Assembly: GCF_013839515.1 (NCBI RefSeq)
Contig: NZ_JACDNQ010000018.1
Coordinates: 10,736-66,349, forward strand
Reading direction: 5' to 3'
Length of the DNA stretch: 55,614 nt
Source of the DNA: Natronomonas salinimetallica
GTDB taxonomy: Archaea > Halobacteriota > Halobacteria > Halobacteriales > Haloarculaceae
In this document: piece after piece, positions 10,125 to 26,357 of the stretch
How positions within the stretch are numbered: position 1 is the first letter of the stretch
Layout: every line of letters begins with the position of its first letter
Notes under the pieces: model-generated
What the model saw: only the letters and a program-made list of their open reading frames with translations
Database searches by the model: none
What the model was told of the DNA's origin: nothing
Translations under genes and position numbers: made by a program

Positions 10125-10253
10125 ATGGAAGATCGAAACGCCCGTACGAACGCGGGATCGGACGCACGTACAGTCTTCACACAGCCGCTCGCACGCGAGT
10201 TCGGAGCGCGTCCGCGGGCAGGAGTGGCGGACGGCGGGGGTGGTCTGTTTTGA
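10125..10253 (+). CDS. Small hypothetical protein, possible first gene of the envelope operon
   Basis: This 42-aa basic protein starts at an ATG with GGAGG four bases upstream, and its TGA overlaps the next start (TTGA). No domain recognised. The Shine-Dalgarno-like motif and the overlap are the only support; the amino-acid composition is unusual (rich in Arg, Ala and Gly). Confidence 0.35.
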   Translation: MEDRNARTNAGSDARTVFTQPLAREFGARPRAGVADGGGGLF

Positions 10254-10453
10254 CACAGTGGGATCCGGACGGCATCGAACTCTCCGAAACGTTTCGAGAG
10301 TACGTCGACGAGCTGCGCGAGACGGCATCGTTTTCTGATTTCGGGTATCGCCACGAGAGCGCGACTGATTCAGTTATGAGAGCACATCGAGCAGAGACGG
10401 CAGTAGCGTTGTTTGGTAAACGACCGTACACCCGCATCCGGGGGGGTCCGTGA
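10250..10453 (+). CDS. Small hypothetical protein preceding the secreted protein gene
   Basis: This 67-aa protein reads from a TTG at 10250 (overlapping the previous stop) to a TGA that overlaps the ATG of the next gene. It contains an acidic amphipathic segment (DGIELSETFREYVDELRETA) and a basic C-terminus. The composition looks like a real haloarchaeal protein, but the TTG start is weak evidence. It could be a cytoplasmic regulator or chaperone of the operon. Confidence 0.4.
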   Translation: MTQWDPDGIELSETFREYVDELRETASFSDFGYRHESATDSVMRAHRAETAVALFGKRPYTRIRGGP

Positions 10454-11946
10454 TGCGGTCGCGGTTGTTCGCAATCTTCGGCGTGGCGCTGTTGCTGTTG
10501 GCCGGGCTGACCGGGCCGGTGGCAGCCGCGCCGGACTTCAACGAAGACGCGGAGGCGGCACAGAATCCGTATATCACGGCGGACGTGACGGTCGACGGCT
10601 TCGATCGCGGCGAAATGTCGGTCGGCGAGTACGAGGACGATAGCGGCGAGATCGTGTCGCTGCCGGCCTCCGTGGTGAAAAGCGAGGACGTCGACGACAT
10701 CGGGACGGGCGAGGTGAATCCGTACACGTTCGTCGCGAGCGACATCAACTTCAGCGACGCGGGGGCGTTCCCGCGGGACAAAGACTCCGTGAGCGCACTC
10801 GATGCGTCGGAGTGGTCGACGGACACGAGCTCGTCGGCGGGCTCGATGTCGGTGTCGGACAGCGAGACGGCGCCGGGCGTTGATGCGGTGTCGATCTCGA
10901 CGTCGTCGCAGACGAGCGGCGACACGGCGGTCGCGACGTTCGGGAACTTCAGCGTGACGTCGGACGTCGAGAAGCGGTATCTGCAGGCGGTCATGGACGT
11001 GAACACGCTGGATTCGGGGACGACGCTCGAGCTTCGAGCGACGGACTCGGACGGCGACTACGTCGTGGCGACGCTGGACTCGGGGGCGACGGCCTCGGAT
11101 GCCGACGTGATCGGCGCGACGACGGGCGAGGGCTTCGTCTTCCAGGAGCAGGTCGGCGGGCTGTCCGTCCAGGGCAGCGGTGACGGTGCGATGGGCGAGA
11201 TTCAGTCGATCGACGTTCACGTTGTCGACGGGAACGCTGACATCGACGTGTCGGCGTTGAACGTCCAGAAGACGTCGGAGTGGTCATTCGGTGCGGAGCG
11301 GGTTGATTCGGACGACGACGACGAGTTCGAGACGAACACGATTCGGGACGTTTCCGAGCCGGGAGCGATCTCGATTCACGACGTCTCGACGATGAGCGGC
11401 GAGTTCGACAGCGCGGAGATCGCAGGGATCACGATGCCGATGGAGTTCGCGGCGTCGGATCTCGATAACGACAGCGATCTCGTGGACGTGACGTTCGACG
11501 AGGCGACGAACTACCCGAGCTTCGAGTGGCGGCAGGAGGCGAACTACCGACTGCAGCTGCCGGACGCCTACGATCTGTCGTACGCGAACGCAGCACTCGA
11601 GCAGGAAGTGTCGGTCCCGGAGAACCGATACAGCGTTGTCGAGATCGCTGAAGGTGCATCCGGGACGGACTTCGAGGACATCGACTCCTGGACGGATAAG
11701 AGCGGGTCGCTGTCGTCCGAGGGGACGACGGTGGAACTCGATTCGACGATCCAGGTCGGCCAGGAGATCGTGGTTCACGAGTCGGTGCTTGTGACCGAGG
11801 ACGAGAAGTCGGCGGTCCAGGCGGTCGGTGGCGTTGGTCAGTTCGGGAGCTCCGGCGGTGGGATTCTCGACATGATTCTCTCCCCGTTCGGCGCGATCGC
11901 GGGCGCCGTGGGTGCGCTGCTCGCTCGGGCTCGAGGAGTGATCTGA
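10453..11946 (+). CDS. Secreted, C-terminally anchored surface protein (spike-like)
   Basis: This 497-aa protein has a Sec signal peptide at residues 1-26 (MRSRLFAIFGVALLLLAGLT, cleavage after AAA), an acidic, cysteine-free, beta-rich ectodomain of about 440 residues, a Gly/Ser linker and one C-terminal hydrophobic helix (ILDMILSPFGAIAGAVGALL) with a short basic tail. This layout equals that of pleolipovirus VP4-type spikes and of S-layer-like surface proteins, though I see no diagnostic motif. It opens the membrane-protein operon, and its ATG overlaps the previous stop (TGATG). It is not a fusexin of the cysteine-rich kind. Confidence 0.75.
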   Translation: MRSRLFAIFGVALLLLAGLTGPVAAAPDFNEDAEAAQNPYITADVTVDGFDRGEMSVGEYEDDSGEIVSLPASVVKSEDVDDIGTGEVNPYTFVASDINFSDAGAFPRDKDSVSALDASEWSTDTSSSAGSMSVSDSETAPGVDAVSISTSSQTSGDTAVATFGNFSVTSDVEKRYLQAVMDVNTLDSGTTLELRATDSDGDYVVATLDSGATASDADVIGATTGEGFVFQEQVGGLSVQGSGDGAMGEIQSIDVHVVDGNADIDVSALNVQKTSEWSFGAERVDSDDDDEFETNTIRDVSEPGAISIHDVSTMSGEFDSAEIAGITMPMEFAASDLDNDSDLVDVTFDEATNYPSFEWRQEANYRLQLPDAYDLSYANAALEQEVSVPENRYSVVEIAEGASGTDFEDIDSWTDKSGSLSSEGTTVELDSTIQVGQEIVVHESVLVTEDEKSAVQAVGGVGQFGSSGGGILDMILSPFGAIAGAVGALLARARGVI

Positions 11947-11950
11947 TCGT

Positions 11951-12385
11951 ATGTCGGCAGCCGATGGAGGTACGGACTGGATCTCGCGGCTTAACGACGT
12001 GTCCGCGATCAACGATCTCGATTCGGCGCTGACGCGGCTGCTGTTCCTCCCGATAGCGGCGTTTTTCGTCCAGTTGGCGAACGCTGTCGAGGCGTTTTCG
12101 CGGATCCTGATCGACCCGGCGTTCGCACTTGCGTCGGGCGTGGTCGGGGTTATCAACGGCCTCGTCGGTGGCGCTGGACGGATAATCGGCGCGGGAGCGG
12201 ACGCATCCGCGGGCGACGTGAGTGTGTTCGGGATCGGTGCGTTTCCGATCGCGATCGGGGTTGCGTTCGTCGGGGCGTTCATCCTGGCGAACTATCTCGA
12301 GCGGCAGGAGACGTCGGACACGCTCCCGTTCACGTTCACGGATATCCCGTTCTTCGGGGTCGAGGAGGAGACGGACGACGATTAA
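11951..12385 (+). CDS. Small multi-pass membrane protein A
   Basis: This 144-aa protein has a short soluble N-terminus, a hydrophobic stretch at about 28-50, a long Gly/Ala-rich segment (AFALASGVVGVINGLVGGAG) and a strong final helix (IAIGVAFVGAFILANYL), then an acidic tail. Its order of elements (WxxxL-N-D start, ...P-A-x-A-x-A-S..., final helix after a G-x-x-F-P motif) recurs in the next protein, suggesting duplication. It probably sits in the cytoplasmic membrane as part of the complex encoded by the operon. Confidence 0.7.
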   Translation: MSAADGGTDWISRLNDVSAINDLDSALTRLLFLPIAAFFVQLANAVEAFSRILIDPAFALASGVVGVINGLVGGAGRIIGAGADASAGDVSVFGIGAFPIAIGVAFVGAFILANYLERQETSDTLPFTFTDIPFFGVEEETDDD

Positions 12386-12389
12386 GGCC

Positions 12390-12443
12390 ATGATCGGGAG
12401 CACCAAACACCAGTCGGCGTTGACGGGGGTCGGAGATGGTTGA
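12390..12443 (+). CDS. Mini-ORF bridging two membrane-protein genes
   Basis: A 17-codon frame starts four bases after the preceding stop and ends eight bases inside the next gene. It may simply keep ribosomes moving across the gap so the next gene is translated by re-initiation. The peptide has no recognisable feature. Confidence 0.2.
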   Translation: MIGSTKHQSALTGVGDG

Positions 12444-12783
12444 CTGGCGTCGGGCGTGGTCGGAGGTCCCGTTTTTGAACGATTCGAGTTCGACGGTCGA
12501 CTGGACCGACGCGGGGTTGACGGCGTTGGGAGTGGTGCTCGTGTCGATCTTCGAGGGGATCGCGGAGTTGGTCGCATCGTTTTTCGATGCGTTTCTGATC
12601 CAGCCGGCGCTGGCGGTGGCGTCGAGTCTCTCGGGGATCGTGTCGGACGGTTCGTCCGCGTTCGCGGGCGCGGTGTCTCCGGACGCGGGCTGGCTCGTCG
12701 AGACGTTCGGCTTCCCCGGCGCGATCGTCGTGATCGCGGTCGGTGCGTACATCGTCGTGTGGACGATCGGGGTGGTTCGATGA
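12436..12783 (+). CDS. Small multi-pass membrane protein B (paralogue of A)
   Basis: This 115-aa protein has two or three hydrophobic helices: about 28-52, about 57-75 (AFLIQPALAVASSLSGIVSD) and a final one (FGFPGAIVVIAVGAYIVVWT). The middle (LIQPALAVASSLSGIV against LIDPAFALASGVVGVI in A) and the G-x-x-F-P lead into the last helix argue for common descent with protein A. The stop overlaps the next ATG. Confidence 0.7.
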   Translation: MVDWRRAWSEVPFLNDSSSTVDWTDAGLTALGVVLVSIFEGIAELVASFFDAFLIQPALAVASSLSGIVSDGSSAFAGAVSPDAGWLVETFGFPGAIVVIAVGAYIVVWTIGVVR

Positions 12784-13286
12784 GTTCAGAGCCGGGGGAG
12801 TTCACCGGCGGCGGTGGCGGCGGCGACGACGACGGAGGCCTCCCCACCTGGATCTTCGATCTTAAGCCGCTGGTTGACTATGTGTCGCTGCTCGTCGATT
12901 TCGCGAGCAGTCCGCTGCGATTCATCCGGCGGCGGCTGATTCCGGTGCTGGTCGGCGGGATCTTCGGATTCGTGTTCGATCTGGCGTCGATAATCAGTCG
13001 TCCGTTCGGCGTGATCGGCGAGTCGCTGGGAGCGGCCGGCGGCGCGCTGTCGACGGGGCTGACGGCGATCCCGGATGCGGTGGCGTCGGGCGTCGTCTCG
13101 AGCGTGGGGTTGCTCGAGGCGGTGACGGCGCCGCTGGGACCGATCCAGCCGTTCGTCCTGGCGGCGGTCGCGATCGTCGCGGGGTACGTCGTGTTCGAGC
13201 TATCGATCCGGGTGGCGCGCGGGCTGGTTTCGGCGCTGCCGGGGCTGTCCTTCGTCGACGGATTCCTCTCGGGTGGTAGCTCATGA
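12780..13286 (+). CDS. Small multi-pass membrane protein C with glycine/acidic N-terminus
   Basis: This 168-aa protein starts with a flexible Gly/Asp-rich tail (EFTGGGGGGDDDGG), followed by hydrophobic or amphipathic helices at about 30-45, 52-75, 80-105 and a strong final helix (FVLAAVAIVAGYVVFELSI). It has the same general order as A and B. The ATGA overlaps on both sides imply equimolar synthesis with its neighbours. No known family recognised. Confidence 0.7.
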   Translation: MSSEPGEFTGGGGGGDDDGGLPTWIFDLKPLVDYVSLLVDFASSPLRFIRRRLIPVLVGGIFGFVFDLASIISRPFGVIGESLGAAGGALSTGLTAIPDAVASGVVSSVGLLEAVTAPLGPIQPFVLAAVAIVAGYVVFELSIRVARGLVSALPGLSFVDGFLSGGSS

Positions 13287-13573
13287 GCGTCCGCGAGGTG
13301 CTGACGGATCCGCTGACGGTGGCGCTATCGTCAGCAGCGGCGTTGCTGCATATGCTGGGGGTCGGCTGGATCGAGGCGGTCGTGGCGGTTGTGTGGACGC
13401 AGCTGCCGACGATCTTCACGATGCTGTCGATCTCGGGATTCACGCTCGCGCCGGAACTCGGATGGTTGCCGGAGGAACCGTTGACGGCGGCGGCGCTGGT
13501 GGTTGCAGGGCTGTACGTTGTGAAATTGAGTGATGATGTGATCGATCAGATACAGGAGCGATTAGATAGATGA
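13283..13573 (+). CDS. Small two-helix membrane protein D
   Basis: This 96-aa protein has hydrophobic helices at about 12-40 (VALSSAAALLHMLGVGW plus IEAVVAVVW), about 42-52 (IFTMLSISGFTLA) and about 66-82 (TAAALVVAGLYVVKL), with a short charged C-terminus (DDVIDQIQERLDR). It overlaps its upstream neighbour by ATGA. Confidence 0.7.
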   Translation: MSVREVLTDPLTVALSSAAALLHMLGVGWIEAVVAVVWTQLPTIFTMLSISGFTLAPELGWLPEEPLTAAALVVAGLYVVKLSDDVIDQIQERLDR

Positions 13574-13641
13574 ACAGAGAGAATCGAGAGCGGATCGAGA
13601 GGCAACGGACGACGTCCAGGAGGCGAGCATGGTCTCAGTAG
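13570..13641 (+). CDS. Mini-ORF encoding a very basic peptide
   Basis: A 23-codon frame starts with an ATGA overlap at the preceding stop and ends 13 bases inside the next gene. The predicted peptide is extremely Arg-rich (about ten Arg residues) in an otherwise acidic proteome. It may act only in translational coupling, but a nucleic-acid-binding or packaging peptide is conceivable. Confidence 0.3.
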   Translation: MNRENRERIERQRTTSRRRAWSQ

Positions 13642-14033
13642 GCGGCCTACTGGGGGCGGTCAGTCTGTGGGGCTTCGGTGTGATAATCGGAGTGATCGGG
13701 CTGTTGACGCTCGTGTACTGGTCCGTCGATGAGTATCGCGAGGCGGACGACGCGAACGAGGCGGTCGAGAACATCGCGGATCGGTCGGGATCGGCGCTCG
13801 TGGTGATCACGGGCGTGATCTTGACGATCGGCGATCAGCTGGCACAGATCGGCGCTGATATCGCGGGGTTGATCGACTCGCCCGTGATCGTCGGCCACCT
13901 GCTCGGGGGCGTCCTGGGGTGGCTCGGCCTTCAGGGGACGATCTCCCAGCGGGACTTTCTGATCTTCTTCGCGATCGTGACGCTGGTCGCGGTCGTATGG
14001 AGGTCGTCACAGTCCAGCGGGAGGGGGACCTAA
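13629..14033 (+). CDS. Multi-pass membrane protein E
   Basis: This 134-aa protein has an N-terminal helix pair (about 5-32, LWGFGVIIGVIGLLTLVYW), a charged loop (DEYREADDANEAVENIADRS), a second hydrophobic region (about 53-100) and a last helix (FLIFFAIVTLVAVVW). GGAGG-like sequence lies about 10 bases before the ATG. It is followed one base later by the 551-aa protein gene. Confidence 0.7.
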   Translation: MVSVGGLLGAVSLWGFGVIIGVIGLLTLVYWSVDEYREADDANEAVENIADRSGSALVVITGVILTIGDQLAQIGADIAGLIDSPVIVGHLLGGVLGWLGLQGTISQRDFLIFFAIVTLVAVVWRSSQSSGRGT

Positions 14034-14034
14034 G

Positions 14035-15690
14035 ATGCGTCGGGGGCTGTTGGTAGCGATCGCGCTCGTCGTGTTGCTTCCGGCGATGCTGGGGCTGCCG
14101 GCGGCCGGCCAGCAGTCCCCGGCGGACGAGTCGGAGTACTCGCTCGAGGAGCTTCGCGAGGGCGGGCGATCGCACGCAGGTGCGCCGCCGTCGATGCGGT
14201 TCCTCGGGCAGTACGGCTCGGCGACGTTGCGGCACGAGCCGGTCGGGTTCGGGACGGACGAGTGGGCGTACGTGAAGCCGGGCGGGGAGACGGTCCAGAA
14301 GAACGAGGTAACGCTTCGGACGATCCGTCTCGGCGATCCGGATTCGGCGCTGACGGTGCGTGTCGTCTCCTGGAACGAGGGCGAGCGGACGATTCAGACG
14401 GAGAACGGCACGCGGACGGAGCCGGTGGCGCGGAACGTCTCCGAGCAGGTGATCGAGGCGGAGGCGGGTCGCGGCTACGATAACAGCACGATCGCGCTGC
14501 CGGCGAGTTTCGAGGAGCAACAGCACATTACGATGTGGGTCGAGGAGTACCCGGAGGCGCGCTGGCACTTCACGCATCGGAGTGTCGGGACGACGCGACC
14601 GATCGATATCTCGTCGTGGGGAGATTTCCTCTCGGCGCTGTTTTGGAAGATCGGCGTGTGGGCGATCCCGGCGCTGTTGATCGGTGGTGCGCTGGGGCGT
14701 CGGCATCGCGAGCGCGCGATTGTGGGTCCCCAATGGGGGCTCGCGAAATGGGGGATCGCGCTGTCGATTCCGATCGGGTTGCTATCGACGTACTTCGCGT
14801 TCCAGGGGTCGATCCTGGCGACACGGATCCCGCAGGGGATCGCGTTGATCACGGGGATCCTGGGGTACGCGCTGGTGCTCGAGGCGGGCGACATGAGTCT
14901 CGAGAAGTTCCTGTTCCGTCGCCAGGAGCTCGAGTCGGCGACGACGCCGCGGGGCGAGGAGTCGCACGATTCGCGGTTCGTCGATCACGCGATCAAGAAG
15001 GGCGTTCGTCGCGAGCGGAACCAGGAGCTCGTGTTGATCGAGCCGGGGCTGTCGGCGTACATCGGCCGGTTGCGCGGGCAGGTAGCGGCGCTGGACGTGT
15101 CGGATCTGGTGACGCACAAGAAGGGCCAGGACAGTCCGTTCGCGATGGAGATAGAGCTCGATCCGGAGTTCGATTTCCGTGATGCGCTGATCCACAAGCC
15201 GCCGACGATCTCCCGGAAGCCGTTGATGTCGAAGGCGGAGCTGCCGCTGGTGGGTGAGACGGAGATCCCGAACCTGGGGGTCGTGGTGCCGCTGGGTGCG
15301 GGCGTCGGGCTGGGGTGGCTGCTCGCGGATCAGACGCTCGGGCTGCCGGGCGTGGGCGCGGTCGTGGGCGTGATCGTGGCGCTGCCGTTCATCCACGAGG
15401 CGACGGACGGCGGCGCGGAGACGGAGCCGGCGCCGTATCACTTCACGCAGGCGGAGGCGTCGTTGAGTTTCGAGGCGGAGGAGTACTCGGACTCGAAGCT
15501 TCTCGACGAGTATCGGCGGATCGCGTGGACGGAGCGGATGAAGACGCCGCTGGACGCGAAGCGGCAGTCGACGCAGTTCGACGAGACGGTCTCGCGTGAG
15601 CTGTCGGAGACGACGCTCGGCGATCTCGGGATCGAGGAGGACGTCGACGGGAGCGATCAGTCCGGAGGTGTCGCGAGTGGCGACGATTGA
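14035..15690 (+). CDS. Large membrane protein with ectodomain and five membrane helices
   Basis: This 551-aa protein has a signal peptide at about 1-25, then an ectodomain (26-197) with three N-glycosylation sequons (Asn124, Asn134, Asn150). Three membrane helices at about 201-221, 238-258 and 265-285 follow, then a charged cytoplasmic domain (about 288-405), two further helices (about 408-452) and an acidic C-terminal cytoplasmic tail. The layout would let it join an outside beta domain to a cytoplasmic NTPase. It is co-transcribed with the NTPase gene and likely forms the core of the envelope complex. No family recognised. Confidence 0.72.
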   Translation: MRRGLLVAIALVVLLPAMLGLPAAGQQSPADESEYSLEELREGGRSHAGAPPSMRFLGQYGSATLRHEPVGFGTDEWAYVKPGGETVQKNEVTLRTIRLGDPDSALTVRVVSWNEGERTIQTENGTRTEPVARNVSEQVIEAEAGRGYDNSTIALPASFEEQQHITMWVEEYPEARWHFTHRSVGTTRPIDISSWGDFLSALFWKIGVWAIPALLIGGALGRRHRERAIVGPQWGLAKWGIALSIPIGLLSTYFAFQGSILATRIPQGIALITGILGYALVLEAGDMSLEKFLFRRQELESATTPRGEESHDSRFVDHAIKKGVRRERNQELVLIEPGLSAYIGRLRGQVAALDVSDLVTHKKGQDSPFAMEIELDPEFDFRDALIHKPPTISRKPLMSKAELPLVGETEIPNLGVVVPLGAGVGLGWLLADQTLGLPGVGAVVGVIVALPFIHEATDGGAETEPAPYHFTQAEASLSFEAEEYSDSKLLDEYRRIAWTERMKTPLDAKRQSTQFDETVSRELSETTLGDLGIEEDVDGSDQSGGVASGDD

Positions 15691-16519
15691 CGATCCCGAG
15701 TCGATGCTGCCGGACAACGAGGAGGACGTCGACGATCGGCGGCCGTCGGCGACGGCGTTCCCGGTGCGGCCGGCGCTCGAGGTCCTGCAGTTGGATCAGC
15801 GCGAGTTGATCGATGTGTCGGATCCGCGCCTCGAGGAGCGGCCGACGCCGGAGTGGGATCTGCGTCGCGGGGTGCCGCATCGTCGGGCGTTGATCGAGTG
15901 GTATCAGCGGGCGACTGTGCGGACGCTGGGGCGGTTTGCTGACTCGGTGCCGCCGGAGAGCCTGCTTCGGGACGACGTCTTCGTGGCGTCGCTGACGGGC
16001 GCGAGCGAGCACGCGAAGCAGTATCGCGGGCGGCTCGAGGACGACAAGTTGATCCCAGCGACGACGGCGGCGTACGATGAGCTCCGCGGCGGTGCGGGCG
16101 AGTACATCGAGGTGTTCGAGGACGACAGCGATTTCAGTCCGATGGATTTCGACCCGGAGCGGCAGGCGAACGTGGCGATGCGGCCGGGGTTCAGTTACAT
16201 CGATCGGATTCAGCAGTCGGCGCTGTCGGCGTTGTGGGGTGGCTTCGAGGATCGGGATGCGCTGCGGGACTGGTTGCACGATCTCTCGAGGGCGACGAAC
16301 GGGCAGCACGAGTCGGAGCTCTCGAAGCGGGTGATGGGGGACGCGAACGCGGTCGCGTGTCTGACCAACCGCGTGTCGGACGAGCACGGGCGCGGGTTTC
16401 GCGAGCGGTTCGCGATCAAGAAGTTGCTGCCGTCGTTCGCGGCGGCCGTCGAGTCGATGGAGACGGGCGAGTTGGCGAAGCGGCGGAAGACGACAGCGCA
16501 GACCTATCAGTTTGGATAA
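15677..16519 (+). CDS. Soluble hypothetical protein coupled to the NTPase gene
   Basis: This 280-aa charged, helical protein has no membrane segment. The GTG at 15677 is chosen because GGAGGTG lies seven bases upstream and the gene overlaps the previous stop by 14 bp; the open frame extends further but only as a shadow. Segments such as HRRALIEWYQRATVRTLGRF and DRDALRDWLHDLSRATNGQH suggest an alpha-helical bundle. Its position between the large membrane protein and the NTPase suggests a cytoplasmic adaptor. Confidence 0.68.
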   Translation: MATIDDPESMLPDNEEDVDDRRPSATAFPVRPALEVLQLDQRELIDVSDPRLEERPTPEWDLRRGVPHRRALIEWYQRATVRTLGRFADSVPPESLLRDDVFVASLTGASEHAKQYRGRLEDDKLIPATTAAYDELRGGAGEYIEVFEDDSDFSPMDFDPERQANVAMRPGFSYIDRIQQSALSALWGGFEDRDALRDWLHDLSRATNGQHESELSKRVMGDANAVACLTNRVSDEHGRGFRERFAIKKLLPSFAAAVESMETGELAKRRKTTAQTYQFG

Positions 16520-16521
16520 TC

Positions 16522-17847
16522 ATGAGCACACAGGAATCCACGGACAGCGAGCAGGAGAGCAGTCCCCGCGAGGAGCTTCGGGAGACGATTCGAGCGGCGT
16601 TCGACCCGTACATGAGGAGCCGGCAGGCCCTCGATGCGAAGGGGATCCCGCCGGACGAGCGCGGGTACAACGACCGGAATCGGCACAACGACGGCGCGGA
16701 GATCTACCAGCAGGTGGGGCTCGCGCCGTTCATCAAGGAGCTCGAGCGCGCCGAGCGGCGTGATCACGAGGTGTCGTCGCATCCGCAGGCACTCGCGCAT
16801 TTGGTCTGTCATATCTCGGACTGGGAGCGGCATCAACTCGGCGAGGAGGAGCCGGATTTCTCGGAGATGGGTCGGCTTCGGAAGCCGGTGCTCGAGTGGC
16901 TGGCGGACGAGGACGATCGGCTGCAGCGACTCCGTCCAGGCGGGACGGAGATCCTGATCCACGGCGAGCAGGGGACGACGAAGACGACGGCGATGTACTG
17001 GTTGATCGCGTTGATCATGCAGCTGAAGCAACGGGAGAACGTCCTTTGGTTGTCGTCGCTGGACGATACGGAGTGGACGGCGCTGGCGCCGTTCGCGACG
17101 GTCGCGCTGCCGGCGGGTGAGCGGGTGAAGGTCCAGGCGAACCCGTACACGCGGGAGCTTCGCGGCGAGATGGTGGATCTGACCATCGACGACGTCGCTC
17201 GGGACGTGATCCGGTACGAGGATCCGCGCGATCTCCTCGAGCAGCTGGACCGGCGGACGTCGGGGCAGTTCTACGTTCTGTATCCGGATCCGAACTTCCG
17301 AGCCTGCGAGGAGATCACGGGGCGATCGTACGCGGGGATCCGAGACGAGGAGGTCGACAAGCTCGGCGACGCGGCGACGATCCACCATTGGTGGTTTGCG
17401 CTCGTCGAGGAGCTCGCGCACGGGACGCAGTATCGCGAGTGGACGACGATCGTCGCTGACGAGGCGCACAAGTGGCTGAAGGCGGGGAAAAGCGACGACG
17501 AACACGACTGGTGGCACAAGATCGACGACTTCTCGTCGACGTGGGCGGACGCTCGGAAGAAGCGGCTGTCGGGGATCTTCGCGACGCACATTTGGCACGA
17601 GATCCCGGATCGCGTCCGTCGGAAGGTGCGCTGGGGAGCGACAATGAACGGCGAGCCGTTTCCGTCGAAGGCGCCGCTGGACGGTCGGAACCGGAATCAG
17701 GATCTCGGAGATACCTGTGTCTGGACGCCGCTGGCGTGGAATTTCGTCGGGTACCCGAATGTACCGCGAAAGGCCGGGACGACGGTGCCGGCGGAGATCT
17801 CGGTGTCGTTTCCTGACTGGGAGGCAGCAAAAAATGATCTCACATAG
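16522..17847 (+). CDS. P-loop NTPase with atypical Walker A (assembly, packaging or export motor)
   Basis: This 441-aa protein has its P-loop at residues 148-155, GEQGTTKT. It has the spacing of Walker A but Thr instead of Gly before the catalytic Lys154. Walker B is TIVADEAHKW with Asp313-Glu314. A helical domain of about 135 residues precedes the NTPase core, and a Trp-rich region (HHWWFAL, EHDWWHKIDDF) surrounds Walker B. The size and position beside membrane proteins recall pleolipovirus VP8-type or VirB4/HerA-type motors, but it is too short for a full VirB4 and lacks a clear HerA signature. It probably powers DNA or protein movement through the complex. Confidence 0.75.
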   Translation: MSTQESTDSEQESSPREELRETIRAAFDPYMRSRQALDAKGIPPDERGYNDRNRHNDGAEIYQQVGLAPFIKELERAERRDHEVSSHPQALAHLVCHISDWERHQLGEEEPDFSEMGRLRKPVLEWLADEDDRLQRLRPGGTEILIHGEQGTTKTTAMYWLIALIMQLKQRENVLWLSSLDDTEWTALAPFATVALPAGERVKVQANPYTRELRGEMVDLTIDDVARDVIRYEDPRDLLEQLDRRTSGQFYVLYPDPNFRACEEITGRSYAGIRDEEVDKLGDAATIHHWWFALVEELAHGTQYREWTTIVADEAHKWLKAGKSDDEHDWWHKIDDFSSTWADARKKRLSGIFATHIWHEIPDRVRRKVRWGATMNGEPFPSKAPLDGRNRNQDLGDTCVWTPLAWNFVGYPNVPRKAGTTVPAEISVSFPDWEAAKNDLT

Positions 17848-17848
17848 C

Positions 17849-18082
17849 ATGAACGACGCGATTTCGAGAGGTAGCGAGTCTGAGGCGCGAATCGGGTCGA
17901 GCGTTTCCGGTGTCGATCAGACCGGGAATCTCGCGACCGGATTACACGCGCGCGTTATGAGGACGGGTGGGGGGACCCTCGCGTCCGCGATACAAGTCGG
18001 CGCGCGGGCAGTCGCGCGTGAACTACGCGAGCGAGCACGCGGTCGGACTTCACACGCGACCGCGGGGGGCGCGGATGTCTGA
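17849..18082 (+). CDS. Small hypothetical protein between NTPase and propeller protein
   Basis: This 77-aa protein reads from ATG 17849 (ATG 17834 is an alternative that overlaps the NTPase end) to a stop inside the start of the next gene. It has a Ser/Gly-rich first half and a basic helical second half (QVGARAVARELRERARGRTS). The frame is open and overlaps both neighbours, but composition is the only other support. Confidence 0.45.
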   Translation: MNDAISRGSESEARIGSSVSGVDQTGNLATGLHARVMRTGGGTLASAIQVGARAVARELRERARGRTSHATAGGADV

Positions 18083-21000
18083 GCGCGAGCGAGCGGTCGG
18101 GCGAGCGGTCGCGATCGTGTTGGTGCTCGCGCTGGCGGTGGCGCCGATCGCGCCGTTCGTGATCGCGCCGAGCTCGGCGCAGTCGGCGCCGTCGGGGATG
18201 GTCGGCGTGTCGGACAGCCAGATCTCCGACATCCGAGCCGAGCAGGGCGCGGGCGGCCTTGAGGCGAGCGAGCTGACCGTCTATACCAGCGAGCACGCGG
18301 AGACGACGTCGGTGTCGATCGTGACGGCGGAGCAGGCCGACGAGATCGCCGCGGGGACGGCGCTGCCGGACGTCGCGAACCAGCGGGTGTGTTCGACGCC
18401 GGCCGGGGACAAGAACCCGAACGCGGACTGTGAGACGACCCCGTCGCTGGTGATCTCCGACGAGGAGCACTCGGCGGGGCGAGAGGTGGCGGTGCGGGCG
18501 GATCCTCTCGAGGACGCGCTGGGGTACACGCCGTCGTTTCTGACGGTTCGGAACTCCGAGTCCGGCGAGGAGTGGCAGTACCCGACGCGGATCGAGGACG
18601 GCTGGTTGATCGTCGATGTCGAGCACTTCTCGAGTAACACGGTCGAGTTCCAGGGGACGGCGGAGATCGACGCGACAGCGACGGACGGGTCGCAGTTCAC
18701 ATACGGGCTGGAGGCGACTGATTCGGTTGAGAACTTCACGATCGACGTGACGGGTCAGATAGCGACGCAGTCCGAGACAGCGACGTTGAGCGGTGCATCG
18801 GATGGGGATACTGTCTCGTACGACATCGGCGGGAATATCGCTCCGGGCGGGCCGTCAGCGACCGACGAGCCGACAGTGACGTTCGAGGGGAACGCTGGGG
18901 ATCCGGACATGGCGTTTACCGACTCGAATTCTAATCTGAAGTTCGTGGATGCAGACGGGAATGTCGGCGATACGGGCGTCACAGCGGACGATGTCGGCGG
19001 CGTCGCGGACTTCGATGACGACGGCGATCAGGAGATCGCGTTTGTCGGATCGAACGGCGTCGAGTTTGTCGATGCGAGCGGATCAACGACGACGATGGAT
19101 ACAGCAGCCAACGATATTGGAGGGGTTGGAGATCCTGACGAGGACGGGGATCCAGAGGTTGCATACATGGACGGTACTAACCTGCAGTTTGTCGACGGAG
19201 CAGGGAATATCGACGATCTCGGCAGAAGTGTCAACGGCGTCGGAGGGATCGGTGATGTTGACGACGATGGGAGTCCGGAGATCGTCGCTGAAGGATATAC
19301 GTATGACTATTTGACATATTATCAGCCGGATGGGACCGAGGATGCGTCTTTCGACACGACGCCGCTGTATGATGCAGGGACGGTTGGCGATATAGATGGC
19401 GACGGAGCTGTCGAAGCGATGTACAAGAACCAAAACAATAATCTCGGATATGCAGATGCGAACGGGCAAGAGGGGACGCTGGCGTCGGGAATTGATTTCG
19501 TTGGTGGGGCTGGCGATATAGATGGGGATGGTGAGGTAGAGGTGTCGTATGATGCTACGGGGCTGAAGTATGTTGATGGATCCGGATCTGTGGAATCGAC
19601 AGGATTAGATATAACACGAGCAGGCGGGATTGCTGATATCGACGGTGATGTGACGACGGATCCGGCGGTCGATATCGATGGAGATGGGACAGACGAGACG
19701 TCGGTGTCGGGGGAGGTCAGCGGTGGTGAGACGGTGACGAAAGAGATCGCGTCGCTGTCGCGATCGGATAGTTCGGCGACGGTGTCGGTCAGCGGCGGCT
19801 CGGTCGACGTGTCGATCGAGTACGACGAGCGGACGGAGACGGTCGATCCAGCGGTGTCGGTGAATGGGAATACAGTTGATCACACGGGAACGCTGGCAGA
19901 GGGCGACACAGTTTCGTTATCGACGGACGCGAGTTGGTTAAGCGACAGCAACACAGTCGATGTCTCGATGTCGGCGCCCGCATCCGGGCCGGCGCCGAAG
20001 GTCGGGCTGGATTACGATCACACGGCGACTGACCAGATCTCGACGTCGTATCAGGCGACGAAATTCGAGGAGCGATACAACGTCTCCCGAACGTTCGCGG
20101 ACGAGACGGCCGACGTCCAGGTGACGATCCCGTTCGACAGCTCGCGGATGGTGTCGATCGGGTCCGTCGAGTACAGCGTCGACGGGGGCTCCTGGCAGTC
20201 GGTGCCGGACGAGCACTACGCACTCGATGGAACGACGCTGACGGCGAATCTCTCGGATGCGAACGGTGGCGCGTTCCCATCGGGATCGACGATCGAGGTA
20301 AACGCCCGTGGTCGGAAGATCCAGGTCGATAACGGCGACGTGACGGTGACAGATCCGTCGGGCATCGACGAGGAACTCGATACGGAGATCCGCGTCGACG
20401 ATCGCGCGCCGGACTTCCGGATGGACGTCGGGCCGACCGAATCGGGCGATCGCGTCCACTACGCGGACTCGAATGAGTATCCGACGGAGGATTACTCGAT
20501 TATCAAGGGCGACGGCACGCAGTACGTCTACCTTCCGAACGCGGGCAACGGCGATCGGTTCCGGATGCGGCATCTCGAGACCCAGGTGTCGATCAACGAC
20601 ACGGGCGACGTCCGCCTCGAGGTGCTCGAAGCCGGCGAGGAGCCGGAGATCGACGTCTCGCCGGGACCGGGCGGCGAGGGCGACGAGGTGACGGTGCGGT
20701 ACTATCAAACCGAGACGGGGCTGAAGTACGTCCTCTCGAGTATCCAGGACAAGATCGTGATCGACAGCGACGTCGCGGAGTCCCCGGCGATCTTCACGAC
20801 GACGGACTCGGAGGACACCTGGACGATCCTCGAGGAGGCGGCGGGGACGGCCTCGTCGTCGACGGGCGGCGTTGCGCAGTTCTCCCAGCGCGCGAGCGGG
20901 CTCTTTAGCTCAATCCCCGGCGGCGGGCTGGGGCTGGTCGCGATCGTGGCGCTGGCGGGCGGCGGGTGGACGCTGCTCCGACGGCGGAGTCCCGACACGG

Positions 21001-21470
21001 CGGGGGCGGTCTCGTCGACGGCGGAGTCGACGGGCAGCGGTATCCTCGGCGTCCTCGAGCGAGTGCTCGGGTACGTCGGCTCGCTGGTGGAGACGCTGCT
21101 CGGGAACCGGAACGCGACGATCGCGCTGGCGGTCGGCGCGGCGCTCGTGGGCGCTCGGTTCGGCTTCTTCCAGCTGCCGGAAGGGACGGCGATCCTGTTG
21201 GTCGTGGCGTCGGTGCCGATCGGGTCGTACGTCGTCCTGCGTCGGACGGGCGTGGTGTCCCAGCGGGTGTGGCTGGCGTCGACGGTCGTCGCGACGATCC
21301 TGGGGCTGGAGTTCGTCGCGCCGGGGACGGTCCAGACGGCGATCGAGCAGCTGACGTCGGAGAACGTCGCGCCGCTGTTGATCCTGGCGGCGGCTGGGGC
21401 CGTCTACCTGTGGTATCGGTCGCGGCAGTCGGATCAGCCGCGGATCGTGATCGGCAGCGGGGAGGACTGA
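18075..21470 (+). CDS. Giant surface protein: FG-GAP beta-propeller with C-terminal membrane helices
   Basis: This 1131-aa protein has a signal peptide at about 1-36 (VAIVLVLALAVAPIAPFVIA). An N-terminal beta domain (40-270) is followed by about seven repeats of roughly 45 residues (about 275-545). Each repeat carries a G-G-x-x-D-x-D-x-D-G calcium loop and a ...EVxY...LxFVDxxG strand pair (for example VGGVADFDDDGDQEIAF, VGGAGDIDGDGEVEVSY): an integrin-like FG-GAP/VCBS propeller. A second beta-rich region (545-910) and a linker lead to four or five hydrophobic helices (about 952-1115). The propeller part is visibly richer in A/T than the rest. The likely role is contact with a host or partner surface. 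Confidence 0.82.
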   Translation: MSERERAVGRAVAIVLVLALAVAPIAPFVIAPSSAQSAPSGMVGVSDSQISDIRAEQGAGGLEASELTVYTSEHAETTSVSIVTAEQADEIAAGTALPDVANQRVCSTPAGDKNPNADCETTPSLVISDEEHSAGREVAVRADPLEDALGYTPSFLTVRNSESGEEWQYPTRIEDGWLIVDVEHFSSNTVEFQGTAEIDATATDGSQFTYGLEATDSVENFTIDVTGQIATQSETATLSGASDGDTVSYDIGGNIAPGGPSATDEPTVTFEGNAGDPDMAFTDSNSNLKFVDADGNVGDTGVTADDVGGVADFDDDGDQEIAFVGSNGVEFVDASGSTTTMDTAANDIGGVGDPDEDGDPEVAYMDGTNLQFVDGAGNIDDLGRSVNGVGGIGDVDDDGSPEIVAEGYTYDYLTYYQPDGTEDASFDTTPLYDAGTVGDIDGDGAVEAMYKNQNNNLGYADANGQEGTLASGIDFVGGAGDIDGDGEVEVSYDATGLKYVDGSGSVESTGLDITRAGGIADIDGDVTTDPAVDIDGDGTDETSVSGEVSGGETVTKEIASLSRSDSSATVSVSGGSVDVSIEYDERTETVDPAVSVNGNTVDHTGTLAEGDTVSLSTDASWLSDSNTVDVSMSAPASGPAPKVGLDYDHTATDQISTSYQATKFEERYNVSRTFADETADVQVTIPFDSSRMVSIGSVEYSVDGGSWQSVPDEHYALDGTTLTANLSDANGGAFPSGSTIEVNARGRKIQVDNGDVTVTDPSGIDEELDTEIRVDDRAPDFRMDVGPTESGDRVHYADSNEYPTEDYSIIKGDGTQYVYLPNAGNGDRFRMRHLETQVSINDTGDVRLEVLEAGEEPEIDVSPGPGGEGDEVTVRYYQTETGLKYVLSSIQDKIVIDSDVAESPAIFTTTDSEDTWTILEEAAGTASSSTGGVAQFSQRASGLFSSIPGGGLGLVAIVALAGGGWTLLRRRSPDTAGAVSSTAESTGSGILGVLERVLGYVGSLVETLLGNRNATIALAVGAALVGARFGFFQLPEGTAILLVVASVPIGSYVVLRRTGVVSQRVWLASTVVATILGLEFVAPGTVQTAIEQLTSENVAPLLILAAAGAVYLWYRSRQSDQPRIVIGSGED

Positions 21471-21477
21471 TCGAGCG

Positions 21478-21777
21478 ATGTTCGGGCTCGTGTCGGAATT
21501 GATCGGTGGGCTGGGGCTGGGCGGGCAGGTGACGACAGCGGTGATCGTGGCGGGGGCTGGGTGGTATCTGTGGCGCGTCGGGGCGGTGGCGTCGGCGCTC
21601 GCGTCGATCCTGTCGTCGGCGCAGGCGATCGGGATCTCCGTCGCGATCGCGCTGGCGGTCGCGATCGCGTTGGGGTGGATCGATCTGTCGATCGCGTCGA
21701 TCACGTCGGACGTCGCGACGGCGGCCTCGAAAGTGCCAGGGGTCTTTCGAGATTTATTCGGAGGGGTGTTGCCGTGA
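21478..21777 (+). CDS. Small two-helix membrane protein F
   Basis: This 99-aa protein has hydrophobic helices at about 4-32 and 36-68 (AIGISVAIALAVAIALGW), then an amphipathic C-terminus. It resembles proteins A-E in size and composition. It lies seven bases after the propeller protein and overlaps the next gene as GTGA. Confidence 0.68.
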   Translation: MFGLVSELIGGLGLGGQVTTAVIVAGAGWYLWRVGAVASALASILSSAQAIGISVAIALAVAIALGWIDLSIASITSDVATAASKVPGVFRDLFGGVLP

Positions 21778-22043
21778 GCATCTTTCCCGATCTGTTGCAC
21801 GAGGAGTACGACGTCGAGGGTGATCTCATCCTCTTCCGCTGTCGGGAGTGCGGCCAAACGTCGATGAGTCTCGGGGCGCTTCACGGTCACTGTGAAAAGC
21901 ACCGCGGCTACACACGGTGGGGAATCAGTCTCCCGTTCACAGAATCGTCACCGGGAAACTTCGATCAGCTGATGGAGTTGACCGAGGTCCTTCGTGTCGA
22001 GGAGACGGCAGAGATCGACCTCGAGGACGTCGACGGTCTGTAG
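21774..22043 (+). CDS. C2H2 zinc-finger protein ending the envelope operon
   Basis: This 89-aa protein contains a classical C2H2 finger: C-R-E-C, twelve residues, H-C-E-K-H (residues about 22-42). C2H2 fingers are frequent in archaeal viruses and plasmids, where they act as DNA-binding regulators. GTG 21774 overlaps the preceding stop as GTGA, with GGAGG about nine bases upstream. It is the last rightward gene of the element. Confidence 0.78.
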   Translation: MSIFPDLLHEEYDVEGDLILFRCRECGQTSMSLGALHGHCEKHRGYTRWGISLPFTESSPGNFDQLMELTEVLRVEETAEIDLEDVDGL

Positions 22044-22100: not shown

Positions 22101-22139
22101 TTATTTTTCTGCCCCGGAGGGGCAGTGCCCTTTAGGCAC
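22101..22139. terminator. Hairpin pair after the envelope operon
   Basis: The T-rich TTATTTTTCT is followed by a perfect 7-bp stem with 3-base loop (CTGCCCC-GGA-GGGGCAG, 22109-22125). A second 5-bp stem (GTGCC-CTTTA-GGCAC, 22125-22139) shares a base with the first. Placed between convergent operons, this is a probable transcription end for the rightward operon. The T-run precedes the stems, so termination at the T-tract itself is also possible. Confidence 0.5.
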
Positions 22140-22260
22140 ACTCGCTAAGGGGATCTTTGCGGCGGCCACAAATCAGCCGGCCGAGAGATCGGCTGCTCGA
22201 AGCCGTCCAGATGAAACACACCCCGAAAACAGGACCCATCAGCGCTGGCGCGCGGACGGG

Positions 22261-22310: not shown

Positions 22311-24011
22311 TCAGTGGATGATCTCAGCCTGCTCGCGAGCGTAGAGATCGTCCAAGAGCGCCTTCGCCTTCGTGGTCTCGTAGCCACCACCCGGCGTCGC
22401 GAACTCGACAGTCGCGTTGCGGAACTCGCGCTCGTTGCCACCCGAGCCGATCCAGGCGTCGAGGGCCTCGTCGATCACCTCGGGAGCCCACGGCGAACTC
22501 GAAGAGCGGTAGCGACTGAGAACAGACTCGATCTTGATTCGGACGTCGCCGGAGGCGTCGTCGACGACGTCAGCGGCGTAGCGTGAGAGCCACTTCTGCA
22601 TCGCGCCGCTCATCTTCTCCAGGAGGCGCTCGTCGAGATCGAGCAGACCGGCCGTCGCCTTGAACGCGGCGTCGAGATGCTGCTCGGTCGTCCGAAGGAC
22701 GTCACGGATCTCCTCAGCGACCTTCCGAGAGCGGAAGCGGATGAGGCCGTTGCTGTTCTCGAGGATGCCGTCGAGTTCGTCCAGGGCGCGGTAGATCGTC
22801 GAAATGTCGCGGCCCGAGCCGTCGGCGACGCGCTGGTAGTGCGTCTCGCCGTTGTCGGCGATCTCCTCGAGGACGTCCATGTCGGCCTCGGAGAGCTCCC
22901 GAAAGGAACGGACGATGACGGACTCCTGCTCGGCCTCGATCTCCGGCGTCGGGTCGGGATGGAGCGCGATCGAGCGCTCGGAGGTCTGAGCCTGGAAGTG
23001 ATCGTCGGGGACGAACGCGACCTCGGCGTCGGTGGGCACGCCGGCGTGCTCGAGGCAGTTGATGACGGTCTCCTCGAGTTCCTGTGTCAACTCGTCGCGA
23101 TCGTTCCAGGCGACGCCCTGCTGGTTGAGCGTGATCGAGTCGTTGTTCGGAGCCTGCCCCTTCTTGAACAGGGCAGCGAACTTCGGATGATAGAGCGGGT
23201 CATCGGTCTGCTGCTTGCGAGGGTGCTGGGGGTGGTAGTGTTTCAGCTGCTTCCCGAGCCGCTGGCCGGGGAGCTTCCGGGCCGTTCCCGCGGGATAGTT
23301 CAGGCGATGATTGTAGCCGACGACCTTCTCGTTGTCGACTTTGTAGGTCACCTTCCGGCCTTTCTCGGAGCCAAGCAGGTACATCAGCCGCCAGAAGTAG
23401 CCGCCCTCGTGCGTGAGCGTCTGGGCGTAGTTCCGCGTGAGGCGGACGTAGCGTTCGAACTGGCTGATACTACTGTGTTCGCCGTCGATGTGCCGCGGAT
23501 CGAGATGCGCGTCGTTGAAGCGCTGGGAAGCCTCCTCGCAGATGGCGTCGACGACCGTCCGGAAGTGCTTGGGAACGGCATCGGGCTCGATGTTCGAACT
23601 GTTGACGTCGACGTCGATGCCTTCGGGATCGGCGTGGGGGTCGGCCTCGAGGTCGTCCCAGACGTCCTCCCACGGCGTCGAGATGTTCATGCCAGCGAAG
23701 CGAGGGCGGACGTGAAAGCTGAGTTTCTCGCGGCCGGGGCCGCGGCCTTTGATCCGCCACTCGTACATCGAGTCGGTCTCGAGGTCGAAGCGGCTGGCGG
23801 GCTCGATCGCACCCTGCTGGTAGTAGATCTCGAACTCGAAGATGTCGACGCCGTCGTCGCGACGGATGGGGATCTCGAGTTCGGTGCTGCCCTCGAAGGG
23901 CGGGCCGAGCAACGCGCCGGAGAGTGCCCAGTAGGGGGCGAGCGTGCCGGGGTACCAGAGTGTCGCCCGGAGTTCGTGCGGCGCCGTCGCGACGTGGTCA
24001 CCCTCAGTCAT
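22311..24011 (-). CDS. Large haloarchaeal-element protein with winged helix (DUF7845-like)
   Basis: This 566-aa soluble protein ends the rightmost leftward operon. Its N-terminal half opens with an HELRATLWYPGTLAPYWALS segment and contains a beta-rich domain with a VRPRFAGMNI strand. A winged helix lies near 390-450 (LSEADMDVLEEIADNGETHY followed by RDISTIYRALDEL). It resembles long proteins I recall as DUF7845 from haloarchaeal viruses and plasmids; that name is from memory and unverified. The conserved size and DNA-binding domain suggest a role in replication or control of the element. Confidence 0.65.
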   Translation of the reverse strand: MTEGDHVATAPHELRATLWYPGTLAPYWALSGALLGPPFEGSTELEIPIRRDDGVDIFEFEIYYQQGAIEPASRFDLETDSMYEWRIKGRGPGREKLSFHVRPRFAGMNISTPWEDVWDDLEADPHADPEGIDVDVNSSNIEPDAVPKHFRTVVDAICEEASQRFNDAHLDPRHIDGEHSSISQFERYVRLTRNYAQTLTHEGGYFWRLMYLLGSEKGRKVTYKVDNEKVVGYNHRLNYPAGTARKLPGQRLGKQLKHYHPQHPRKQQTDDPLYHPKFAALFKKGQAPNNDSITLNQQGVAWNDRDELTQELEETVINCLEHAGVPTDAEVAFVPDDHFQAQTSERSIALHPDPTPEIEAEQESVIVRSFRELSEADMDVLEEIADNGETHYQRVADGSGRDISTIYRALDELDGILENSNGLIRFRSRKVAEEIRDVLRTTEQHLDAAFKATAGLLDLDERLLEKMSGAMQKWLSRYAADVVDDASGDVRIKIESVLSRYRSSSSPWAPEVIDEALDAWIGSGGNEREFRNATVEFATPGGGYETTKAKALLDDLYAREQAEIIH

Positions 24012-24376
24012 CGCGACCCACCGTCGGCGGCGATCTCGGCAGCGCTCTCGTCGACCGCAGCGTCAGCGTCGGCGTCGGCCTCCTGGAGGAAGCCGTCGCG
24101 ATCGTGCGTGATCGCGCGGCGTCGCTCGTCGAGCTTCCGGATGACGTGCTCGCGGTTGCGACAGCGTCGTTCGACCTGGAACCAGTAGGCGAGCTCCTCG
24201 GGATCGTCGATGCCTTTGACGATCGCCATCGCGGTCGCGAGCTCCGGTGTCTGGCCCTGGCCCGTATCGAGGCCGGACTGCGAGCGCGTGTGCAGCCAGA
24301 CCGCGGGGTTGTACCCGATGGCGTCGACGACGTCCGGGAACCGCGGGTAGTCGCCGGCGTTGGTCTGCCCGCGCAT
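24008..24376 (-). CDS. Small hypothetical protein
   Basis: This 122-aa protein has a conserved-looking core (YPRFPDVVDAIGYNPAVWLH, then LATAMAIVKGIDDPEELAYW) that is mostly helical, with a basic helix (RRCRNREHVIRKLDERRR) and an acidic Ala/Asp tail. Both ends overlap neighbours. The constant pairing with the larger gene after it suggests joint function. No family name can be given with confidence. Confidence 0.65.
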   Translation of the reverse strand: MRGQTNAGDYPRFPDVVDAIGYNPAVWLHTRSQSGLDTGQGQTPELATAMAIVKGIDDPEELAYWFQVERRCRNREHVIRKLDERRRAITHDRDGFLQEADADADAAVDESAAEIAADGGSR

Positions 24377-26232: not shown

Positions 26233-26357
26233 GGGCGACACCTCCCGTCAGCGAGGGCCGGACAGCGCTGGTCGGCCTCGGTGATGTAGGTGCCGCAGTA
26301 CTCGCAGATTTTGGGTTCGACGGTGGCGGTGTCACCGCCCGTTTCGGGGCGGCTCAT
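26229..26357 (-). CDS. Mini zinc-ribbon protein, first gene of the rightmost operon
   Basis: This 42-aa protein has CEYC and two later cysteines (CPALADGRC). The ATG at 26357 and stop at 26229-26231 were read directly, and the stop overlaps the next GTG. A TATA-like ATTAAAATT (26411-26419, leftward) lies about 55 bp upstream, between gene and tRNA, so transcription of the operon probably begins at the edge of the element with a leader of about 30 bases. Confidence 0.6.
   Translation of the reverse strand: MSRPETGGDTATVEPKICEYCGTYITEADQRCPALADGRCRP

What the first reader, a model, noticed from the sequence alone, without database searches (positions are those of the whole stretch)
10125..22043. 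Candidate undescribed envelope-spanning machine in an integrated element
One rightward operon encodes two signal-peptide proteins (497 and 1131 aa), a 551-aa ectodomain plus five-helix protein, six small multi-pass proteins, a soluble partner, an NTPase and a C2H2 finger, almost all with overlapping starts and stops. It matches no standard tailed-virus set (no terminase, portal or capsid seen) and no complete VirB/D4 conjugation set. Comparators known to me are pleolipovirus structural/NTPase clusters, plasmid-vesicle element pR1SE of Halorubrum lacusprofundi, and haloarchaeal integrated elements with T4SS-like genes. It could form vesicles, virions or a DNA-export channel.
Basis: partly seen in the sequence, partly recalled or inferred. 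Interest (0 to 1): 0.88.

Follow-up and report, generated by a model that had tools for sequence, protein, structure and literature searches.

The report
Haloarchaeal integrated element with undescribed envelope module
A 26.5-kb mobile element inserted in a tRNA gene of a salt-loving archaeon combines replication and integration genes known from a pleomorphic virus with a set of about eleven surface and membrane genes that has no described counterpart, yet sits in the same order in roughly one in seven haloarchaeal genomes, and probably makes membrane-bound particles that carry the element's DNA out of the cell.

Summary
In detail: 10453-21777 is one compact rightward operon of surface, membrane and NTPase proteins with almost no database match. 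It is a conserved module. NTPase, G551 and A497 homologues occur in 61, 60 and 53 of 392 genomes of the order, each in 23 of 95 genera. The 59 loci read keep, with few exceptions, the order A497-B-C-D-E-F-G551-H283-NTPase-S1131-J. The window's copy lies in a 26.5-kb element bounded by 13-bp att repeats in tRNA-Val; a congener has the empty site. The chassis is that of pleolipovirus SNJ2: integrase (37% to SNJ2, 49% to lemon-shaped virus LSV-48N), Orc1 (32%), a convergent Rep-Arvir (DUF7845) rolling-circle Rep, and the origin hairpin. The module occupies the slot of the pleolipovirus structural genes but lacks their membrane protein and spike, the pR1SE set, the pT26-2 core and any VirB4/VirD4. 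Only the NTPase links outward (pTN2 ATPase 99%; pleolipovirus and inovirus pI ATPases weakly). Best reading: a non-lytic envelope module making membrane particles (virions or plasmid vesicles), with A497 a glycan-binding-like spike and S1131 the fast-evolving surface protein. A contact-dependent DNA channel is the main rival. No particle has been observed.

The parts
26424..26436 (-). attR, TGGGTTCGGGCAG, in the 3' end of tRNA-Val(GAC) at 26424-26498; attL is the identical 13-mer 105 bp left of the window start (contig C10:10630-10642)
   Evidence: flank-junction alignment to congener G295
30..1103 (-). tyrosine integrase, SNJ2 type, left end of the element
   Evidence: 49% to LSV-48N integrase, 37% to SNJ2 integrase; Phage_int_SAM and Phage_integrase domains
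4323..4601 (+). winged-helix regulator
   Evidence: 39% to SNJ2 gp04
5610..6620 (-). Orc1/Cdc6-like protein
   Evidence: Pfam Cdc6_lid and AAA; 32% to SNJ2 Orc1 over its length
10453..11946 (+). A497: signal peptide, all-beta ectodomain with a jelly roll like carbohydrate-binding modules, C-terminal TM helix
   Evidence: model pLDDT 81.5; fold matches to CBM11 and HFTV1 turret; 53/392 genomes of the order
11951..12385 (+). B144: small membrane protein, paralogue of the next gene
   Evidence: profile comparison 98.3% over 98 columns; controls below 10%
12436..12783 (+). C115: small two-TM protein, paralogue of B144
12780..13286 (+). D168: small membrane protein, weakly related to C115
13283..13573 (+). 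E96: small two-TM protein
13629..14033 (+). F134: small multi-pass protein; followed in many loci by one to three further small membrane genes
14035..15690 (+). G551: signal peptide, beta ectodomain, helical membrane block, cytosolic domain, two more TM helices, helical tail
   Evidence: model pLDDT 70, pTM 0.47; 60/392 genomes
15668..16519 (+). H283: soluble partner protein between G551 and the NTPase
16522..17847 (+). N442: P-loop NTPase (Walker A GEQGTTKTT, Walker B DE)
   Evidence: pTN2 ATPase 99% over 266 columns; pleolipovirus NTPase 61-67%, inovirus pI 45% around Walker B; 61/392 genomes
18075..21470 (+). S1131: large secreted protein with beta repeats and C-terminal TM helices; fastest evolving of the five proteins tested
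   Evidence: FG-GAP trace E 0.0076; haloarchaeal surface-glycoprotein signal in a homologue; dN/dS 0.38-0.53
21478..21777 (+). J99: small membrane protein closing the conserved set
22117..22152 (-). predicted rolling-circle origin hairpin, CCCCTTAGCGAGTGTGCCTAAAGGGCACTGCC, about 170 nt after the rep stop
   Evidence: same motif at the same distance in SNJ2, HHPV3, HRPV3, HGPV1, Harhisp1 and LSV-48N; chance rate 0.6% per stretch
22311..24011 (-). Rep-Arvir (DUF7845) rolling-circle replication initiator, convergent with the operon
   Evidence: Pfam DUF7845 E 1.4e-75; PHROG 3288; profile match to pleolipovirus Reps E 4e-79; catalytic Tyr and adjacent Lys kept in 51/51
24008..26241 (-). right-end small genes co-oriented with rep, running in from attR (include a DUF6884 protein)
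   Evidence: layout as in SNJ2 (PMC13107129)

Best explanation
The operon is the morphogenesis (envelope) module of a temperate, non-lytic mobile element with an SNJ2-type chassis. Shown here: the element is integrated at tRNA-Val, carries its own integrase, an Orc1-like protein, a rolling-circle Rep and the matching origin hairpin, and the module is kept as a unit across haloarchaea. Inferred: on excision the integrase operon joins the rep operon, as in SNJ2, and starts rolling-circle replication. The module then assembles at the cytoplasmic membrane: small membrane proteins (tandem paralogues B and C, with D, E, F, J) form the particle's membrane protein layer; G551 with H283 forms the docking platform for the NTPase; the NTPase drives DNA into budding particles; A497 (glycan-binding-like, anchored) and the fast-evolving S1131 sit outside and bind the host S-layer. 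The product would be an enveloped virion or plasmid vesicle released without lysis.
For: Same genomic slot and layout as the SNJ2 structural module, between the chassis genes and a convergent rep. Two virus types with particles use this chassis: pleomorphic SNJ2 and lemon-shaped LSV-48N (PMC13107129, PMC12714723). Conserved co-occurrence. A497 fold resembles carbohydrate-binding modules and the HFTV1 capsid turret. S1131 evolves about twice as fast as NTPase and G551 between neighbouring elements, as receptor-facing proteins do. One NTPase only, weakly like pleolipovirus and inovirus assembly ATPases. No relaxase, VirB4 or VirD4, and no lysis gene recognised. Purifying selection on all five proteins tested.
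Against: No protein matches any known virion membrane or spike protein. None of the IMG/VR pattern scans that ran, all with the NTPase, found a relative, nor did the phage records; both argue against abundant free virions. Divergent versions sit on stable plasmids (pNG300, Halosegnis plasmid). The G551 model is of modest confidence. The NTPase link to pleolipovirus and inovirus ATPases rests on one motif region.
Confidence: 0.57

Rival explanations
1. A contact-dependent DNA-transfer channel of an integrative element: Rep nicks and doubles as relaxase, the NTPase pumps DNA, G551/H283 and the small membrane proteins form the channel, and A497/S1131 are mating adhesins.
For: Membrane-rich set with one NTPase; two external proteins; Rep-Arvir is a distant relative of Rep_trans, a family that includes the ICEBs1 relaxase NicK, and DUF7845 proteins also occur in elements the authors class as integrative and conjugative (PMC13107129). 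Divergent versions on large plasmids. The related pTN2 ATPase is a plasmid protein.
Against: No VirB4, VirD4 or known relaxase family in the module; replacement of the virus structural slot is unexplained; fast evolution of S1131 and the turret-like A497 fit host recognition by a particle better.
Confidence: 0.23
2. A surface structure that serves the host (adhesion, biofilm, competition between microbes), carried as cargo and unrelated to DNA transfer.
For: Secreted, anchored, sugar-binding-like proteins; survives in integrated form with open reading frames.
Against: Linked to the element's chassis in most loci (rep present in most loci read, integrase or tRNA often); patchy within genera (absent from the ten congeners searched).
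Confidence: 0.1
3. A defective or domesticated remnant of one of the above, with no present function in transfer.
For: Rep in the window has Ala where SNJ2 has essential Glu303 (alignment there is not certain).
Against: Frames intact; dN/dS about 0.17-0.53 in all five proteins tested; att sites, integrase, origin hairpin and catalytic Tyr all present.
Confidence: 0.1

Closest known systems
Betapleolipovirus SNJ2 and relatives (Pleolipoviridae)
   Same: Integrase family, Orc1-like protein, wHTH regulator, Rep-Arvir, origin hairpin about 170 nt after rep, overall layout with convergent rep, NTPase in the rightward module
   Different: No match to the VP1/VP3-type four-TM membrane protein, spike, ORF p190 or p270; different number and order of structural genes; 26.5 kb against about 9-17 kb
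Haloferax lemon-shaped virus LSV-48N
   Same: Closest integrase (49%), Rep and origin; a secreted protein with a beta-sandwich domain like a cellulosome protein is reported for LSV-48N (PMC12714723)
   Different: Structural proteins not related at profile level; LSV-48N encodes a DnaA-like ATPase
pR1SE-like plasmids (apHPVs)
   Same: Membrane and secreted proteins next to an NTPase; MCM and HhH genes near some loci; integrated and free forms
   Different: No S8 protease, no ORF6-9 cluster, NTPase unrelated at profile level (0.35%)
Thermococcus plasmid pTN2
   Same: NTPase homologous along 266 columns
   Different: Rest of pTN2 not matched; different replication genes
Haloarcula marismortui plasmid pNG300
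   Same: Carries a divergent copy: B/D, E, G551 (E 1.5e-130), H283, NTPase in order
   Different: A497, S1131 and rep not found in the 15.5 kb read; MCM inserted before the NTPase

Membership tests
SNJ2-type integrative chassis | SNJ2-family tyrosine integrase at one end next to att site in a tRNA gene | tested here: met
SNJ2-type integrative chassis | Rep-Arvir with catalytic Tyr in K-x-Y motif and downstream origin hairpin | tested here: met
   Glu303 equivalent reads Ala in the window
Pleolipoviridae | VP3-type internal membrane protein with four TM segments | tested here: not met
   no profile match of any module family
Pleolipoviridae | VP4-type spike | tested here: not met
   A497 profile 1.7% to spikes; fold search gave no pleolipovirus spike
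Pleolipoviridae | NTPase of the VP8 type | tested here: inconclusive
   61-67% over the Walker B region only
Pleolipoviridae | pleomorphic enveloped virions | not testable with these tools
   needs microscopy
pR1SE-like plasmids (apHPV) | ORF6-9 cluster with S8 protease | tested here: not met
   absent in the window; no profile match of module families to pHTUR05/pHALXA03 proteins (S1131 not profiled)
pR1SE-like plasmids (apHPV) | ORF25 VirB4/HerA-like ATPase | tested here: not met
   0.35%
pT26-2 plasmid family | seven core genes | tested here: not met
   no pMEFER01 protein matched except a weak ATPase motif
Lemon-shaped viruses (LSV-48N, His1) | homologous coat and tail proteins | tested here: not met
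   single-sequence targets, so low sensitivity for small membrane proteins
Conjugative elements (T4SS) | VirB4 and VirD4 ATPases and a relaxase | tested here: not met
   Rep acting as relaxase not tested
Tailed viruses | terminase, portal, HK97 capsid | tested here: not met

The most novel reading that the evidence does not exclude
A new family of enveloped archaeal viruses (or infectious vesicle plasmids), common across haloarchaea, whose particle module has no homologue in any described virus and has been swapped onto the same replication and integration chassis as pleomorphic and lemon-shaped viruses: three unrelated particle types on one chassis.
Probability: 0.45. Interest if true: 0.88.

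Novelty: new variant of a known kind. Interest (0 to 1): 0.76.

Why it matters
About 15% of sampled haloarchaeal genomes (61 of 392) carry a surface/membrane/NTPase machine that has no annotation, including cultured type strains. If it makes DNA-carrying particles it is a large hidden class of haloarchaeal virus or vesicle element, and shows that one replication-integration chassis has been fitted with at least three unrelated dispersal modules. If it is a DNA channel it would be a transfer system in haloarchaea with no T4SS core ATPase recognised. Either outcome is testable with strains on the shelf.

Tried and rejected
G551 'hits' to pleolipovirus p190 and apHPV ORF23 (79%) were opened and are signal peptides only; rejected. 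N442 hits to the LSV-48N 336-aa protein and His1 ORF16 are Walker A only; rejected. PDB hits of the NTPase profile to Lon are a helical/P-loop trace; not used. IMG/VR scans: four ran, all with the NTPase, and gave no relative; a scan with A497 could not run for lack of a conserved stretch, so the virome test rests on the NTPase alone. pT26-2 accession NC_014116 and pR1SE KX687704 were not held; relatives pMEFER01, pHTUR05 and pHALXA03 were used instead. NC_009884 was fetched by mistake for PAV1 (it is AFV2) and not used. The 2018 paper on SNJ2 integrases is not held and the supplementary tables of PMC13107129 could not be read, so some of these elements may already be listed there as integrative elements. 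The viral fold search of G551 gave nothing significant. S1131 was not run in the profile-profile comparison (time).
Full report
Observation. Between 10453 and 22043 lie twelve rightward genes with coding statistics typical of the genome and touching or overlapping ends. Two have signal peptides and large ectodomains (497 and 1131 aa), one has a signal peptide, an ectodomain and a membrane block (551 aa), six are small membrane proteins, one is soluble (~283 aa), one is a P-loop NTPase (~441 aa) and one a C2H2 finger. Pfam, PHROGs and NCBIfam name almost nothing in the set; the NTPase meets PHROG 22963 (unknown function, E 1e-10).

Conservation. A protein search with the NTPase over 392 genomes of the order found matches in 61 genomes and 23 of 95 genera. 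I fetched 38 of these loci blind and ran iterative profile searches. With the Halosegnis plasmid locus, the families were found in nearly all, and gene maps showed one order: A497, B, C, D, E, F (then up to three variable small membrane genes), G551, H283, NTPase, S1131, J. In two loci (L045, L049) S1131 sits before G551, and in a Haloarcula group its place is taken by another protein, with a carboxypeptidase-regulatory-like domain in the one scanned. A scan of named genomes gave 21 loci from Halobellus, Halosimplex, Haloarcula/Halomicroarcula, Halorubrum, Halorussus, Natronoglomus, Halovivax and a Halobacteriales MAG with the same order; some of these are the same places as loci fetched earlier. 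Independent searches with A497 and G551 gave 53/392 and 60/392 genomes, in 23 genera each. Over 393 genomes of the phylum, A497 was found only in members of the same order.

The element. A 13-bp repeat, TGGGTTCGGGCAG, lies at the 3' end of tRNA-Val (26424-26436) and again 105 bp left of the window start, just behind the stop codon of a tyrosine integrase (30-1103, minus). Twelve-base matches are expected about once in such a search, so the repeat alone is weak. Joining the two host flanks at the repeat gives a sequence that aligns to a congener through the junction, over 545 bp. The element is about 26.5 kb. A 10-N scaffold gap lies at the window's left edge, with the same integrase-end sequence on both sides, which supports adjacency. 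Many other loci have a tRNA gene at the same end and 19 loci show a short integrase within the stretch read.

The chassis. The integrase is 49% identical to that of lemon-shaped virus LSV-48N and 37% to that of pleolipovirus SNJ2. The Orc1-like protein is 32% identical to SNJ2 Orc1 and a wHTH protein 39% to SNJ2 gp04. The 566-aa 'regulator' at 22311-24011 is a DUF7845 protein. This family was shown in 2026 to be a rolling-circle replication initiator, Rep-Arvir, in SNJ2 (PMC13107129). Its profile matches pleolipovirus Reps at E 4e-79; the catalytic Tyr and the neighbouring Lys are kept in 51 of 51 sequences, while the position of SNJ2 Glu303 reads Ala in the window. About 170 nt after the rep stop lies the hairpin TTAG-N-GTGTGCCTAAAGGGCAC, at the same distance as in SNJ2, HHPV3, HRPV3, HGPV1, Harhisp1 and LSV-48N; the core motif has a 0.6% chance rate per stretch. 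In the window, as in SNJ2, excision would join the integrase operon to the rep operon. That a replication operon forms this way is shown for SNJ2 in that paper and inferred here.

What the module is not. Profile comparison of the module families (S1131 not included) with 86 reference proteins or groups (pleolipovirus sets, pHTUR05/pHALXA03 as pR1SE-like plasmids, pMEFER01 as pT26-2 family, pTN2, LSV-48N, His1) gave real matches only for Rep and for the NTPase. The NTPase matches the pTN2 ATPase along 266 columns (99%, E 3e-18). Around Walker B it also resembles the pleolipovirus NTPase (61-67%) and inovirus pI assembly ATPases (45%), a shared DE...RK...S...H pattern, and two family members touch Pfam Zot, the family of inovirus pI (that Zot and pI are one family is from general knowledge). 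G551 matches were signal peptides only. S1131 has no PDB match.

What the parts look like. A497 models well (pLDDT 81.5, pTM 0.76): an all-beta ectodomain with a jelly roll like carbohydrate-binding modules (CBM11, TM 0.60 by target) and like the turret of haloarchaeal virus HFTV1, then a C-terminal helix. G551 models as beta ectodomain, helical membrane block, cytosolic domain, two more TM helices and a helical tail, with modest confidence and no fold match. B144 and C115 are tandem paralogues (98.3% over 98 columns, controls below 10%); D168 is weakly related. One S1131 homologue has the haloarchaeal surface-glycoprotein signal. Between neighbouring elements the NTPase is 74-81% identical and S1131 only 45-53%; dN/dS is roughly 0.18-0.36 for NTPase and G551, 0.28-0.47 for A497, 0.20-0.42 for H283 and 0.38-0.53 for S1131. 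These are the marks of a working machine with a variable outer face.

Mechanism. The module takes the place that the structural genes hold in SNJ2, on a chassis that two virus types with observed particles use. It has one assembly-like NTPase, no conjugation ATPase pair, no recognised lysis gene, a turret-like glycan-binding candidate and a diversifying outer protein. I therefore favour a non-lytic membrane particle, virion or plasmid vesicle (0.57). A contact-dependent channel (0.23) is not excluded: Rep_trans relatives include relaxases, and large plasmids carry the set. Absence of known capsid homologues does not count against particles; LSV-48N also had none at sequence level (PMC12714723). 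Absence from IMG/VR (NTPase searched) and from phage records does count somewhat against abundant virions.

Novelty. Literature searches found no description of this gene set. The 2026 Rep-Arvir paper mentions integrative and conjugative elements in a supplement I could not read, and the 2018 SNJ2-integrase paper is not held, so single loci may have been listed before. I class it as a new variant of a known kind: known chassis, undescribed dispersal module.

Noticed in passing
G000:C23:39914-49934 (L060) and G000:C25:9066-15978 (L061): The same genome carries two further, diverged copies of the module (NTPase 33% and 36% to the window's), so three such elements coexist.
   Followed up: partly
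L133:5257-15479 (pNG300 of Haloarcula marismortui ATCC 43049): A well-known 39.5-kb circular plasmid of a laboratory strain carries a divergent copy (B/D, E, G551, H283, NTPase with an MCM inserted).
   Followed up: partly
L085:3362-4039, L086:3881-4408, L087 (Halorubrum halophilum, lipolyticum, sodomense): A497 is replaced by a short two-TM protein; in L085 and L086 it matches the G551 profile, as if the G551 ectodomain had been copied into the A497 slot.
   Followed up: no
L060, L073, L075, L133 and L007: An MCM helicase gene (629-649 aa where whole) is inserted inside or next to the module; in Halosegnis marinus it appears as two open frames.
   Followed up: partly
7690-8745 and 8838-9506: Mrr-type restriction endonuclease with a TM segment next to a serine resolvase, between the Orc1 gene and the module: possible defence or cargo region.
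   Followed up: no
24376-24990: DUF6884 protein (YaaA-like trace) in the rep operon; a DUF6884 gene also sits on apHPV plasmid pHALXA03 (L109:38206-38715).
   Followed up: no
window 1 / contig C10:10726-10735: Ten-N scaffold gap with the same integrase-end sequence on both sides, a sign of an overlap not merged by the assembler.
   Followed up: partly
22311-24011: Position equivalent to SNJ2 Rep Glu303 (essential there) reads Ala; 33 of 51 aligned homologues have Glu and 17 Gly, so the active site may vary or the alignment may slip.
   Followed up: partly
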